Below, piece by piece: positions 28,082 to 38,452 of a stretch of 42,057 bases of DNA; the first letter of the stretch is position 1; each line of letters starts with the position of its first letter. A program made the translations under genes and the position numbers. The notes under the pieces were generated by a model. It was given only the letters and a program-made list of their open reading frames with translations, was not told the DNA's origin and did not search any database. Source of the DNA: Candidatus Wallbacteria bacterium GWC2_49_35 (GTDB lineage: Bacteria; Muiribacteriota; UBA9980); contig MGFH01000138.1 in assembly GCA_001791795.1 (NCBI GenBank), positions 1 to 42,057 on the forward strand, in the 5' to 3' direction.

Positions 28082-29521
28082 ATGTTACTTACCAAAAAGC
28101 TGCTCAAGGAAATCAACGGTTCGCTCTCGCTGAATGCCGGCGGGTCCGGCGAAGCCGCTATCGAACTGGGGCCGCCTTCGATCGATACCAGAAAGATCAA
28201 TAAAGGCGACACTTTTTTCGGCATCGACGGTGAAGCGCGTGACGGCTGCGAGTTTTTCGAACAGGCAATCGAAAAAGGCGCCGGCTGCGTCGTATTGACT
28301 TCCAATTACCGCGAGATGTTCGAAAAATCGGAGATCGCCCGTAAACATAAAGCGGCCGGCCTTTTCGTGGCCAGCACACGCGTCGCACTCCGCCAGCTAG
28401 GTTTTTCTAACAGGCTCACTCACTCAGTGCCGTTCGTCGCCGTGACCGGCTCGAACGGGAAAACCACGACCAAGGAGCTTATCGCGGCGATACTCGGTCG
28501 GAAATACAGGGTTTTCAAAACGGCCGGCAATTTCAATAACGACCTGGGGCTTCCGATGCAGCTGATGTGCCTTGACAAGAGCCATGAGATAGGCGTCGTC
28601 GAGCTCGGAATGAGCGCGCCCGGCGAGATCGACTCGCTGGCTTCGCTTGTGCTGCCGCGCGTGGGCGTAATAACCTGCGTAGGGCCGTCGCATATAGAAT
28701 TTTTAAAGACGCTGAAGAATATAGCCAGGGCCAAGGCCGAGCTCATCCCCCGCGTCGATACGCAGGGCTGCCTAATACTCAATTACGATAATAACTACAC
28801 GCGCAAGATGTCGTCGCAGTATTCGGGCAGGTCGGTCGGCTATTCAATTTCGAACCGATCGTCTAAAATACAGGCCAAGAACGTTACCGTCAATGAAAAC
28901 GGCTTTTACGATTTCGACTGCGTCGTGAAAACCGATCTTAAAAATTATCCGCCTTTTCGCGTTTCGCTCAATCTGGCGGGCCGCCACAACGTGCTCAACG
29001 CGCTCGCCGCGATCTGCGCGGCGATAGAGTTCGGCGTTTCTACCGCGGATATAGTCAACGGTTTGAACGATTTCAACGGCGTTCAGAAGCGAATGGAACT
29101 TATTAAACTTTCCGGCGGTGTCACCGTTTTGAACGACTGCTACAACGCCAATCCTCTTTCGATGAAATCGGCCCTCGAAACGGTCTCTGAATTCAAGGCG
29201 TTTTCGGGTCGCCGCGTCGCCATACTCGGCGATATGCTCGAGCTCGGCAACTGGAGCGTCAGGGCGCATTCCGATATGGGCCGGCTGGCCGCCAAATGCG
29301 GCGTCGAGCTGCTTGTCACGGTCGGCGAAAAGTCGAAGTATACGATGCAGGCGGCCATAGAAGCAGGTTTCGCTCCGGAACGCGCCCTTCATTTCAGCGA
29401 CTCGGCGGAGGCCGCCGGGCGCGTCAGGCAAATAGTTAAAACCGGCGATTTCGTTCTGATAAAGGGATCCCGCGGGATGAAACTCGAAGTCGTTTTGAAC
29501 GCGCTTCAAGGGGAGAAATAG
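28082..29521 (+). CDS. murF: UDP-MurNAc-tripeptide-D-Ala-D-Ala ligase
   Basis: VAVTGSNGKTTTKELI, TAGNFNNDLGLP, VLNDCYNANPLSMKSAL, ILGDMLELG. Confidence 0.95.
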   Translation: MLLTKKLLKEINGSLSLNAGGSGEAAIELGPPSIDTRKINKGDTFFGIDGEARDGCEFFEQAIEKGAGCVVLTSNYREMFEKSEIARKHKAAGLFVASTRVALRQLGFSNRLTHSVPFVAVTGSNGKTTTKELIAAILGRKYRVFKTAGNFNNDLGLPMQLMCLDKSHEIGVVELGMSAPGEIDSLASLVLPRVGVITCVGPSHIEFLKTLKNIARAKAELIPRVDTQGCLILNYDNNYTRKMSSQYSGRSVGYSISNRSSKIQAKNVTVNENGFYDFDCVVKTDLKNYPPFRVSLNLAGRHNVLNALAAICAAIEFGVSTADIVNGLNDFNGVQKRMELIKLSGGVTVLNDCYNANPLSMKSALETVSEFKAFSGRRVAILGDMLELGNWSVRAHSDMGRLAAKCGVELLVTVGEKSKYTMQAAIEAGFAPERALHFSDSAEAAGRVRQIVKTGDFVLIKGSRGMKLEVVLNALQGEK

Positions 29522-34676: not shown

Positions 34677-36101
34677 ATGGACAAGAACAGATACACCCAC
34701 TTTATCGGTATCGGCGGAACGGGCATGAGCGGGATCGCGCAGATATTGCTTGAACTCAACTATAAGATATCCGGCTCCGACATCAAGACAAACTGTAATA
34801 CCAGAAGGCTCGAAAAAAAAGGCGCGAAAATTTCGACCGGCCACAGGGCGGAAAATTTTGACGGCCTCGATATCGGAGCCGTGGTGGTATCTACGGCCAT
34901 ATCGGACGTCAATCCTGAAATCAGCTGGGCGCGCGCGAATAATATTCCGATATACAGGCGTGCGGAAGTTTTAGGATACATATTAAACAATAAATTCGGC
35001 GTCGCCGTCGCCGGAACGCACGGCAAGACCACGACCACTTCGCTCATATCCATGCTCATGGAAAGCCACGAGCTTAATCCGACCGTCATAGTCGGCGGCG
35101 AGGTCTGCGATTTCGGTGGAAACGCCAAACTCGGCGGCGGAACCTACACGGTCGTCGAGGCCGACGAATCCGACTCCTCGTTTTTATATCTCACCCCGCA
35201 GGTCATCGTAACGACGAATATCGAAGAAGACCATCTTGATTATTATTCTGGTATCGACCAGATCAACACCGCTTTCGCCGATTTTTTCAACAAGATAAAA
35301 CCTGGCGGAACCATAATATGCTGCAGCGACAGCGCGAATATCAACCGTCTTAAGCCGCATATGCCTTCGCGCGCTAAAATCATCACTTACGGCCTCAATC
35401 CGGCCGGAAATCCCGATTTTCTGCTCGGCGATATCCGTCAGAACGGCATGGGGGTTTCGTTCGAACTCAGGCATTTAAAAAAATCCATAGGACGCTTCAA
35501 ACTTAACATCCCCGGCCTTCATAACGCACTGAACGCGACGGCCGCCATAATCGTATGTCTCGAAACTCTCGGGCTTTCGATCGATTCGGTACGCCAGAAT
35601 TTATTGAAATTCAAAGGCGTCGAGCGCAGGTTCCAGGTTATAGGCGAGGTGGAAGGCATAACTGTGGTAGACGATTACGCGCATCATCCGACGGAGATCA
35701 ACGCGGTTCTCAATACCGCCCGCTCGTCTTTCGACAAAAGAATCATAGCCATATTCCAGCCGCATCGGTTTTCGCGCACCCGCCACTTTTACGAGGAAAT
35801 GGCCGGCGCACTCAACACGGCCGACGTTGTAATACTGACCGATATATACCGCGCTTCGGAGGCGCCGATATCAGGCGTTTCATCTGAACTGATACTCAAC
35901 ACCCTTCAGAGGATGGGGAAAAAAGATTCGCTCATAATAAACGACATCAAGAACGTAGCCTGCTATACGGCGTCGATCGCCCGCAGGAACGATTTCATAT
36001 TCACCATAGGCGCCGGCGATGTCACGACTATATCGCCGGACATACTCAGGAAATTACAGGAAAAATACGCGGGCAAAAAAGCCGCGGGATTCCAGGGGTA
36101 A
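34677..36101 (+). CDS. murC: UDP-MurNAc:L-alanine ligase
   Basis: FIGIGGTGMSGIAQIL, VAGTHGKTTTTSLI, EADESDSSFL, VVDDYAHHPTEI. Confidence 0.96.
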   Translation: MDKNRYTHFIGIGGTGMSGIAQILLELNYKISGSDIKTNCNTRRLEKKGAKISTGHRAENFDGLDIGAVVVSTAISDVNPEISWARANNIPIYRRAEVLGYILNNKFGVAVAGTHGKTTTTSLISMLMESHELNPTVIVGGEVCDFGGNAKLGGGTYTVVEADESDSSFLYLTPQVIVTTNIEEDHLDYYSGIDQINTAFADFFNKIKPGGTIICCSDSANINRLKPHMPSRAKIITYGLNPAGNPDFLLGDIRQNGMGVSFELRHLKKSIGRFKLNIPGLHNALNATAAIIVCLETLGLSIDSVRQNLLKFKGVERRFQVIGEVEGITVVDDYAHHPTEINAVLNTARSSFDKRIIAIFQPHRFSRTRHFYEEMAGALNTADVVILTDIYRASEAPISGVSSELILNTLQRMGKKDSLIINDIKNVACYTASIARRNDFIFTIGAGDVTTISPDILRKLQEKYAGKKAAGFQG

Positions 36102-36119
36102 AAAAAAAACTTTTTTTTC

Positions 36120-36148
36120 TTGTAAATAAAACGGATTCCTGCTATAAT
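36120..36148 (+). promoter_or_regulatory. Sigma70-type promoter TTGTAA-17-TATAAT between murC and ftsQ
   Basis: TTGTAA 36120-36125, TATAAT 36143-36148. Confidence 0.65.
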
Positions 36149-36194
36149 ACTCCTAAATATTTTATTCTATATTGTATAGTGTACCTTTCTTTTA

Positions 36195-36279
36195 TTTAAG
36201 AACGATTTTTCCGAAGAACGCTTAAGTACTAAGCGGACCGGATTTTATGCGGGCGGACCGTCCGAAGATCGTTCTTAAA
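36195..36279 (+). promoter_or_regulatory. Structured 5' leader element upstream of ftsQ (class unknown)
   Basis: Perfect 12-bp closing stem TTTAAGAACGAT (36195-36206)/ATCGTTCTTAAA (36268-36279); internal hairpin CGCTTA-AGTAC-TAAGCG (36219-36235); direct repeat GCGGACCG (36233-36240, 36253-36260). Confidence 0.55.
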
Positions 36280-36311
36280 GATTGCGAAAGGTTTTATTTT
36301 TATGCGTTATT

Positions 36312-37085
36312 ATGGATTTGACGGGCAGAAAGTGGATAAATTTTAAAAAACTCCTGCGATTTTCGCGAAATATCTTCGCGGTTGTATTGACTGCGTTTTT
36401 ATTTCTGCTCGCTGTCTGGGAATTCAAGTATTTGATTTTTGAAACTTCATATTTCGAATTGAAGAAAATATCGATCGAAGGCAATTACACGATCGAAAAA
36501 GAAAAGATCCTCGCGCTTTCAGGCTTCAAACTTTCCGAAAATTTTCTGAAACTGAATTACCGGGCGGCCGAAAGCCGTTTGCGCGCGATGCCTAAGATCA
36601 AAGAAGTCGAGATCGTGACCGAAGGCGTCGGCGAGGTCCTCATCAGGATCAGCGAACGCGAAAGCGTCCTGTTGGTGCTTCACGAGCGTAAATTTTACGA
36701 GCTGGACGCCGAAGGTTATATTTTAAGCGCCTCGAATAAGAACGTCAGGGTCGACCTGCCCATACTTACGGGCGTGGCGATGCCTGTCACCAATATAGGC
36801 GAGAGCGTACAGGCCGAGATCAAGATCAAAAGCGTTATAAACTGGGTCGTCAACCTGGCGCCTTCGTTTCTGACCAATATATCCGAAATATGCCTGAACG
36901 GGAACGAGATAGTTTTGATTACCAATAACGGAATAAAAATCTATCCCGGCAACGCCGTAAACTTCAAGAACAATTTCGATCTGCTCACGATAGTGCTCGA
37001 GCGGTTCCAGAAGGACGGTATGAAGATAAGCTACGTGGATATGCGCTTTAACAACGAAGTAGTGGTAAAACCGATCGTAAACTAA
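36312..37085 (+). CDS. ftsQ: FtsQ/DivIB-like cell division protein
   Basis: N-terminal TM, POTRA-like FELKKISIEGNYTIEKEKILALSGFKLSENFLKL, position between murC and ftsA; ATG 36312 preferred over TTG 36282. Confidence 0.85.
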   Translation: MDLTGRKWINFKKLLRFSRNIFAVVLTAFLFLLAVWEFKYLIFETSYFELKKISIEGNYTIEKEKILALSGFKLSENFLKLNYRAAESRLRAMPKIKEVEIVTEGVGEVLIRISERESVLLVLHERKFYELDAEGYILSASNKNVRVDLPILTGVAMPVTNIGESVQAEIKIKSVINWVVNLAPSFLTNISEICLNGNEIVLITNNGIKIYPGNAVNFKNNFDLLTIVLERFQKDGMKISYVDMRFNNEVVVKPIVN

Positions 37086-37163: not shown

Positions 37164-38402
37164 ATGTCAAAAGACGGTCTGGTTGTGGGGCTGGACGTCG
37201 GCACGACGAAAACCGCGGTCGTGGTCGGCGAAGCTTCAGAAAATAACGAAATATATATATTAGGCAGCGGCATAGCGCCGTCTACCGGAATAAAAAAAGG
37301 GATGATCATCAATATCGAGGAGACCATCAAGACTATCGAAGCGGTGGTCTCGGACGCCGAGCATATTTCGGACGCCGATATTGACACGGTTTACATAAGC
37401 GTCGGCGGATATCATATCCAGGGGCAGAACACCCGCGGAAGAATAATAATACCGCCCTCGCAGAAGGAAATAGTTTCGGAAGATAAAAGCCGCGTCCAGG
37501 AAGCGGCGCGCGCCATACAGCTGGCGGCTAATTACGAGATTCTGCACGTCATACCTAAAGAATACAAGGTCGACGATCAGGACGGGATACTCGATCCGGC
37601 CGGCATGGTGGGTTCCCAGCTCGAAGTGGAAACGCATATAATAACGGCGTCTTCGATAGCCCTGCGCAACCTGCAGAAAAGCGTCAAAGGCTCCGGGCTC
37701 AAAATAAAGGACTCGATCTCCGAAGGGCTGGCGGCCGCCGAGGCCGTGCTCACCCCTGACGAAAAAGACCTCGGCGTAGTTCTTTTGCATATAGGCGGCG
37801 GAACCACTGATATAGTGGCCTACGCCAACGGGTACGTCAAATACAGCGGAGTGCTGCCGATAGGCTCGGCCCATCTGACCTCCGATATTTCGATAGGCCT
37901 GCGCACTTCATACCAGGAAGCCGAAAAGCTCAAGATAAAGCACGGCGTTATCTGGCTCGAAGGCGCGAACCTCGACGAGAAAATAAGCGTGGCCAACGCC
38001 GGAAACGACGGCGCGCGCATGATCGAATTAAGGCAGATGGTTGAAATTATAGAGCCGCGAATGGAAGAGATGTTTGCGATGATAAAAGGCGAGATCAAAA
38101 AGATCGGGCCGGTCGCGAAGATACCTGCGGGCGCGGTGTTGAGCGGCGGCGGAGCGCTTCTGAACGGTATCGTGAAATTCGCCGAAAAAACCCTGGACAT
38201 GCCGGTGCGCATAGGAAAGCCCAACAATATAAACGGGCTTACGGATCGCGTCAACGGCCCCGCCTTTTCGGCGTGCATAGGGCTTCTGATGTACGGGTTG
38301 AAATTCCAGAACCAGCACGCCCGGCAGCCGTTCATGCGCACGGGCGGCACTTACGACGGCCTGAAAAGCTGGCTGAAGAGTTTTTTCAAAGATATTTTTT
38401 AA
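37164..38402 (+). CDS. ftsA: Cell division protein FtsA
   Basis: VVGLDVGTTKTAVVVG, HIGGGTTDIVAYANG, amphipathic C-terminal GLKSWLKSFFKDIF. Confidence 0.95.
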   Translation: MSKDGLVVGLDVGTTKTAVVVGEASENNEIYILGSGIAPSTGIKKGMIINIEETIKTIEAVVSDAEHISDADIDTVYISVGGYHIQGQNTRGRIIIPPSQKEIVSEDKSRVQEAARAIQLAANYEILHVIPKEYKVDDQDGILDPAGMVGSQLEVETHIITASSIALRNLQKSVKGSGLKIKDSISEGLAAAEAVLTPDEKDLGVVLLHIGGGTTDIVAYANGYVKYSGVLPIGSAHLTSDISIGLRTSYQEAEKLKIKHGVIWLEGANLDEKISVANAGNDGARMIELRQMVEIIEPRMEEMFAMIKGEIKKIGPVAKIPAGAVLSGGGALLNGIVKFAEKTLDMPVRIGKPNNINGLTDRVNGPAFSACIGLLMYGLKFQNQHARQPFMRTGGTYDGLKSWLKSFFKDIF

Positions 38403-38452
38403 GGCTTTTTTTGTAATGAATATTTTGGTTATATCATAAAGGGGGAATAGTA

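What the first reader, a model, noticed from the sequence alone, without database searches (positions are those of the whole stretch)
36102..36311. Promoter plus multi-stem structured leader between murC and ftsQ
The otherwise compact cluster is interrupted by ~200 nt containing a near-consensus promoter (TTGTAA-17-TATAAT). The predicted ~155-nt leader contains a perfect 12-bp closing stem over 85 nt, an inner hairpin CGCTTA-AGTAC-TAAGCG and a direct repeat GCGGACCG. The closing-stem 3' arm lies ~30 nt before the ftsQ ATG, so it could control translation or elongation into ftsQAZ. It does not look like a plain terminator (no U-tract after the stem).
Basis: partly seen in the sequence, partly recalled or inferred. 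Interest (0 to 1): 0.6.

Follow-up and report, generated by a model that had tools for sequence, protein, structure and literature searches.

The report
Conserved ribosome-site-masking leader before ftsQ
In one uncultured bacterial genus, a new promoter and a folded RNA leader lie just before the cell-division genes ftsQ-ftsA-ftsZ; the fold hides the ribosome-binding site next to ftsQ and probably keeps FtsQ scarce while the same mRNA still makes plenty of FtsZ.

Summary
The promoter, the stem position and several sequence blocks are conserved in all three species of the genus whose assemblies cover the spot, although four-fold synonymous sites there are only about 40% identical. The inner hairpin and the repeat are not conserved. 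A U-rich tract directly follows this outer helix. The Shine-Dalgarno sequence is best spaced for a conserved out-of-frame AUG (36302) that opens a 14-codon ORF overlapping the ftsQ start (36312). The leader occurs once per genome, only before ftsQ; in four other genera of the phylum ftsQ directly abuts murC or murB. Best explanation: a strong operon promoter with a leader that masks the ribosome-binding site and keeps FtsQ output low relative to FtsZ. Weak transcription attenuation remains a rival. It matches no Rfam family, does not look like a riboswitch or thermometer, and is a new member of a known kind.

The parts
36100..36119 (+). A-tract/T-tract (AAAAAAAAAACTTTTTTTTC) directly upstream of the -35 box; UP-element-like
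   Evidence: Block AAAAAAAACTTTTTTTT conserved in three species; one copy per genome with TTGTAA attached. UP-element reading is inference.
36120..36148 (+). Sigma-70-type promoter TTGTAA-17-TATAAT with extended -10 (TGCTATAAT); predicted TSS about 36155
   Evidence: conserved in G002 and G003, -35 through TTGTAAATAAAA invariant. TSS inferred.
36178..36192 (+). Invariant 15-mer AGTGTACCTTTCTTT containing the anti-Shine-Dalgarno ACCTTTC (36183-36189)
   Evidence: Identical in three species; only exact copy in each genome
36195..36210 (+). 5' arm of the long stem (12 perfect pairs, 16 with G-U)
   Evidence: two pairs changed on both sides (G-C to A-U), one U-U break in G003 and one mismatch in the extension in G002
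36211..36263 (+). Apical domain, variable in sequence and fold (in this species two hairpins, incl. 36219-36235)
36264..36279 (+). 3' arm of the long stem
36286..36292 (+). Shine-Dalgarno GAAAGG(T), paired with 36183-36189
   Evidence: Pairing probability about 0.98-1.0 for the SD bases at 37 C in all three species; same SD motif precedes window genes at 28082 and 31019
36293..36301 (+). Conserved U-rich spacer UUUAUUUUU, which follows the outer helix (possible terminator tail)
36302..36346 (+). Out-of-frame 14-codon ORF (MRYYGFDGQKVDKF) opened by the conserved AUG1; overlaps the ftsQ start
   Evidence: AUG1 and its SD spacing conserved in three species, peptide not conserved
36312..37085 (+). 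ftsQ (AUG2 at 36312); POTRA and FtsQ C-terminal domains
   Evidence: Pfam PF08478, PF03799; mostly third-position changes from AUG2 on
37164..38402 (+). ftsA, downstream gene of the unit
   Evidence: Pfam PF14450
38453..39529 (+). ftsZ, downstream gene with a strong, conserved, accessible SD (AAAGGGGG)
   Evidence: Pfam PF00091, PF12327; SD energy -10.7 kcal/mol in three species

Best explanation
A genus-specific promoter was set in front of ftsQAZ, and its roughly 155-nt leader is a cis-acting translational brake. The invariant ACCUUUC in the 5' part pairs with the only good Shine-Dalgarno sequence, GAAAGGU, and a 12-16 bp stem with a free-to-vary apical domain brings the two strands together. 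In addition the SD is spaced for an out-of-frame AUG (36302), so recruited ribosomes mostly translate a 14-codon decoy. FtsQ starts 10 nt further on without an SD of its own, by weak initiation or by reinitiation after the decoy stop at 36346. The result would be a strong ftsQAZ transcript with little FtsQ and much FtsZ. Shown: the conservation, the predicted pairing in all three species, the compensated pairs, the uniqueness. Inferred: the TSS, the repression, the decoy and the dosage purpose.
For: Invariant anti-SD and SD blocks in three species whose four-fold sites in murC and ftsQ are only 38-47% identical. Each species folds unaided into the same outer plan, with SD bases paired at about 0.98-1.0 at 37 C. 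Consensus fold z -10.3, SCI 0.82 vs 0.19, 0/300 shuffles. In the 12-bp stem the only substituted columns of the two arms are exact partners, and two pairs go G-C to A-U. Opening the SD costs 5.1-7.8 kcal/mol. Predicted initiation is poor at ftsQ (opening 12-13 against SD -7.5; no SD fits AUG2) and good at ftsZ (opening about 7, SD -10.7) in all three species. E. coli needs the same grading: 147 FtsQ, 575 FtsA, 3335 FtsZ per cell (PMC4462998), and ORFs of one operon mRNA can differ up to 100-fold in translation (PMC5318159).
Against: The anti-SD/SD helix itself never varies, so it has no covariation. With three sequences, the count of pairs changed on both sides is reached by 66 of 500 shuffles. 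The opening cost at AUG1 (12-13 kcal/mol) is only modestly above the mean of 19 other starts in the window (10.0, sd 3.8). The conserved AGUGU and UUU flanks are not explained by the pairing. No expression data.
Confidence: 0.55

Rival explanations
1. Regulated switch: the leader is masked by default and a trans factor (protein, small RNA or metabolite) opens the SD under some growth state, tuning division to growth.
For: The 15-nt block AGTGTACCTTTCTTT is conserved well beyond the 7 paired bases. If the SD is freed, the anti-SD can pair with ftsQ codons around 6-8 in the consensus fold.
Against: No conserved aptamer-like core: the apical domain is the most variable part. No Rfam match. The alternative fold is about 6 kcal/mol worse and lies on codons constrained by the protein.
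Confidence: 0.2
2. Transcription attenuator: the outer helix with its UUUAUUUUU tail is an intrinsic terminator that limits transcription from the new promoter into ftsQAZ.
For: The U-rich tail directly follows GAAAGGU in three species; a tail/stability score is positive in this species (+9.7).
Against: The score is slightly negative in the two relatives (-1.4, -3.3) and the formula was not made for a 110-nt stem with internal loop. The 7-bp helix has only three G-C pairs. SD-AUG spacers are often U-rich anyway. No conserved antiterminator found.
Confidence: 0.15
3. The structure mainly protects or processes the mRNA: a 5' stem that blocks decay from the 5' end, or an RNase III site.
For: A long imperfect duplex near a 5' end is typical of stabilising leaders (own knowledge); the sequence of the apical part is free.
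Against: Does not explain why the pairing takes in exactly the SD, or the invariant anti-SD block.
Confidence: 0.08
4. Only the promoter matters; the leader fold is a by-product.
For: Promoter blocks are as conserved as the leader blocks.
Against: Fold z-scores in every species and in consensus, partner-matched changes.
Confidence: 0.02

Closest known systems
RBS-sequestering 5' leaders with long-range anti-SD/SD pairing (translational control by mRNA structure)
   Same: SD masked by an upstream complementary stretch across a folded domain
   Different: New sequence family before ftsQ, no known effector, SD feeds an out-of-frame overlapping AUG
E. coli ftsQAZ promoters (ftsQ1p gearbox, ftsQ2p)
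   Same: Promoter placed directly before ftsQ that drives ftsQ-ftsA-ftsZ (PMC4462998 for ftsQ1p)
   Different: Sigma-70-like extended -10 promoter with A/T tract and a structured leader in an otherwise gene-free gap; no homology claimed
Overlapping-ORF reinitiation, as at the RNA-phage MS2 lysis gene (own knowledge)
   Same: A start codon tens of nt upstream of the stop of an overlapping out-of-frame ORF, without a good SD of its own
   Different: Here the first ORF has only 14 codons; coupling is untested
Riboswitches and RNA thermometers
   Same: Masked SD in a 5' leader
   Different: No conserved aptamer core; predicted SD pairing barely changes up to 65 C

Membership tests
RBS-sequestering translational leader | SD base-paired in the predicted fold of every homologue | tested here: met
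   Pairing probability about 0.98-1.0 at 37 C in three of three species
RBS-sequestering translational leader | Complementary strand conserved or covarying | tested here: met
   ACCTTTC and GAAAGGT invariant; inner stem has two compensated pairs. No covariation in the SD helix itself.
RBS-sequestering translational leader | Translation rises when the pairing is broken and falls when it is restored | not testable with these tools
   Needs reporter fusions
Known Rfam family | Score above the gathering threshold of a covariance model | tested here: not met
   No match in the window; only a chance-level PrfA hit, 19.6 bits vs 88
Ligand riboswitch | Conserved aptamer core | tested here: not met
   Apical domain unconserved in sequence and fold between three species
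RNA thermometer | SD helix melts near physiological temperature | tested here: not met
   Predicted SD pairing at least 0.88 at 65 C in all three (model energies only)
Intrinsic terminator / attenuator | Stable stem directly followed by a U-tract | tested here: inconclusive
   UUUAUUUUU follows the outer helix; score +9.7, -1.4, -3.3
Intrinsic terminator / attenuator | Mutually exclusive conserved antiterminator | tested here: not met
   With the SD strand blocked, only a weaker pairing with ftsQ codons appears
Sigma-70 extended -10 promoter | TTGACA/TGnTATAAT-like boxes, 16-18 nt spacing, conserved | tested here: met
   10 of 12 matches, spacing 17, TG present; conserved
Sigma-70 extended -10 promoter | Mapped transcription start | not testable with these tools
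   No transcript data

The most novel reading that the evidence does not exclude
The leader is a two-part translational governor for the divisome: an anti-SD mimic plus an SD-fed out-of-frame decoy ORF makes ftsQ translation a fixed small fraction of ftsZ translation from one promoter, possibly opened by a cell-cycle or growth signal that recognises AGUGUACCUUUCUUU.
Probability: 0.2. Interest if true: 0.6.

Novelty: new member of a known kind. Interest (0 to 1): 0.42.

Why it matters
Division genes that share one mRNA need very different protein amounts (in E. coli about 147 FtsQ to 3335 FtsZ per cell, PMC4462998). How other phyla set this ratio is, as far as I know, mostly unstudied. A conserved leader that masks the first gene's ribosome site while the operon has its own strong promoter is a concrete, testable answer in an uncultured lineage.

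Tried and rejected
Rfam scan: nothing. Copies of the leader elsewhere in its own genome, the genus or the phylum by DNA, covariance model and patterns: only the ftsQ site in three species; weak model hits (E 0.24-0.92) in other genera are chance-level, and the near matches to the 15-mer that I looked at lie in apparent coding sequence. Scan of the genome collection with FtsA: no further genus members beyond the three already held; the record for G001 starts inside ftsQ. A first alignment had G003 on the wrong strand and was discarded. FtsQ starting upstream of 36312: an in-frame TGA in G002 excludes it there. A prfB-like +1 frameshift from the 14-codon ORF into ftsQ (UUU UAA): not conserved in G003 (UAU UAA). 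Leader-peptide arrest: the peptide is not conserved. Thermometer: predicted pairing hardly melts. Paper searches found nothing on structured ftsQ leaders and no paper naming ADurb.Bin243; a recalled 'ftsZ-DE' motif was not found in the library.

Full report
Observation. The gap between murC (stop 36099-36101) and ftsQ (ATG 36312) holds TTGTAA-17-TATAAT with a TG extension, a perfect 12-bp stem 36195-36206/36268-36279, a small hairpin and a GCGGACCG repeat. A promoter match of this quality is expected about once in such a region by chance, so its weight comes from conservation. The fold is well below shuffles.

Relatives. NCBI leaves ADurb.Bin243 as unclassified Bacteria. A third relative (G001) begins inside ftsQ, so its leader is not assembled. 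Four-fold degenerate sites in murC and ftsQ are 38-47% identical between species, so neutral sequence is near saturation. Against this, several blocks stand out: the A/T tract and -35 region up to TTGTAAATAAAA, CCTGYTATAAT, AGTGTACCTTTCTTT, and GAAAGGTTTTRTTTTTATG.

Structure. The 12-bp stem is not the outermost element. ACCUUUC (36183-36189) pairs with GAAAGGU (36286-36292), with a 5 x 6 nt internal loop between this helix and the long stem. Each of the three sequences folds this way without being forced, and the SD bases are paired with probability of about 0.98-1.0 at 37 C. In the 12-bp stem the substituted columns in the two arms are exact partners; two pairs change on both sides (G-C to A-U) and one of these is broken in G003. 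The shuffle control for that count alone is weak with three sequences (66/500), but the consensus fold is strong: -26.4 kcal/mol against -3.7 +/- 2.2 in column shuffles, SCI 0.82 against 0.19, 0/300.

Start codons. The SD GAAAGG also serves other genes in this window (before 28082 and 31019). It lies 10 nt before an AUG at 36302 and 20 nt before the ftsQ AUG at 36312. Both AUGs, and their spacing, are kept in all three species; the seven bases between them are not. From 36312 onward changes fall mainly on third positions of the ftsQ frame, so ftsQ starts there. In G002 an in-frame TGA excludes an upstream start. AUG1 therefore opens a 14-codon ORF that ends at 36346 inside ftsQ. Its peptide is not conserved; its start and SD are.

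Reading. A strong promoter followed by a masked SD, an out-of-frame start and an SD-less ftsQ start predicts low FtsQ synthesis from an abundant mRNA. ftsZ on the same strand has a nearly invariant, accessible AAAGGGGG SD (-10.7 kcal/mol, opening about 7 kcal/mol), whereas ftsQ AUG1 pays 12-13 kcal/mol for an SD worth -7.5. In E. coli the ratio is about 147 FtsQ: 575 FtsA: 3335 FtsZ (PMC4462998), and translation within operons can differ 100-fold (PMC5318159). I take this graded-dosage brake as the most likely function, and regulation by a signal as second. The opening cost is only modestly above that of other starts in the window, so strong repression should not be assumed.

Attenuation. A terminator score is positive here and slightly negative in the relatives. 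It stays a rival.

Origin. The leader is found once per genome and nowhere else in the phylum sample. In four other genera of the phylum ftsQ directly abuts murC or murB; in three of them (G022, G005, G004) a gene that looks like murB by position and sequence precedes ftsQ (not profiled gene by gene). In this genus murB lies on another contig. The promoter and leader thus probably arose in the lineage of this genus at the place where murB sits in several relatives.

Classification. No Rfam family matches. It works like an RBS-masking translational leader and fails the tests tried for riboswitch and thermometer. It is a new member of a known kind, not a new kind.

Noticed in passing
38423-38452 (upstream of ftsZ): The ftsZ translation start region TTTTGGTTATATYATAAAGGGGGAATAGTA is nearly invariant in three species, with an unusually strong SD.
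   Followed up: partly
36099-36312: In three genera of the phylum a murB-like gene lies immediately before ftsQ; in this genus murB is on another contig and the leader occupies the place. MurB was not found in the window's own 77%-complete genome.
   Followed up: partly
L066:1: The G001 contig breaks inside the 5' part of ftsQ, close to the leader, and no close murC orthologue was found in that genome.
   Followed up: no
36327-36337: If the SD strand is freed, the anti-SD can pair with ftsQ codons around 6-8 (AGAAAGTGG) in the consensus fold.
   Followed up: no
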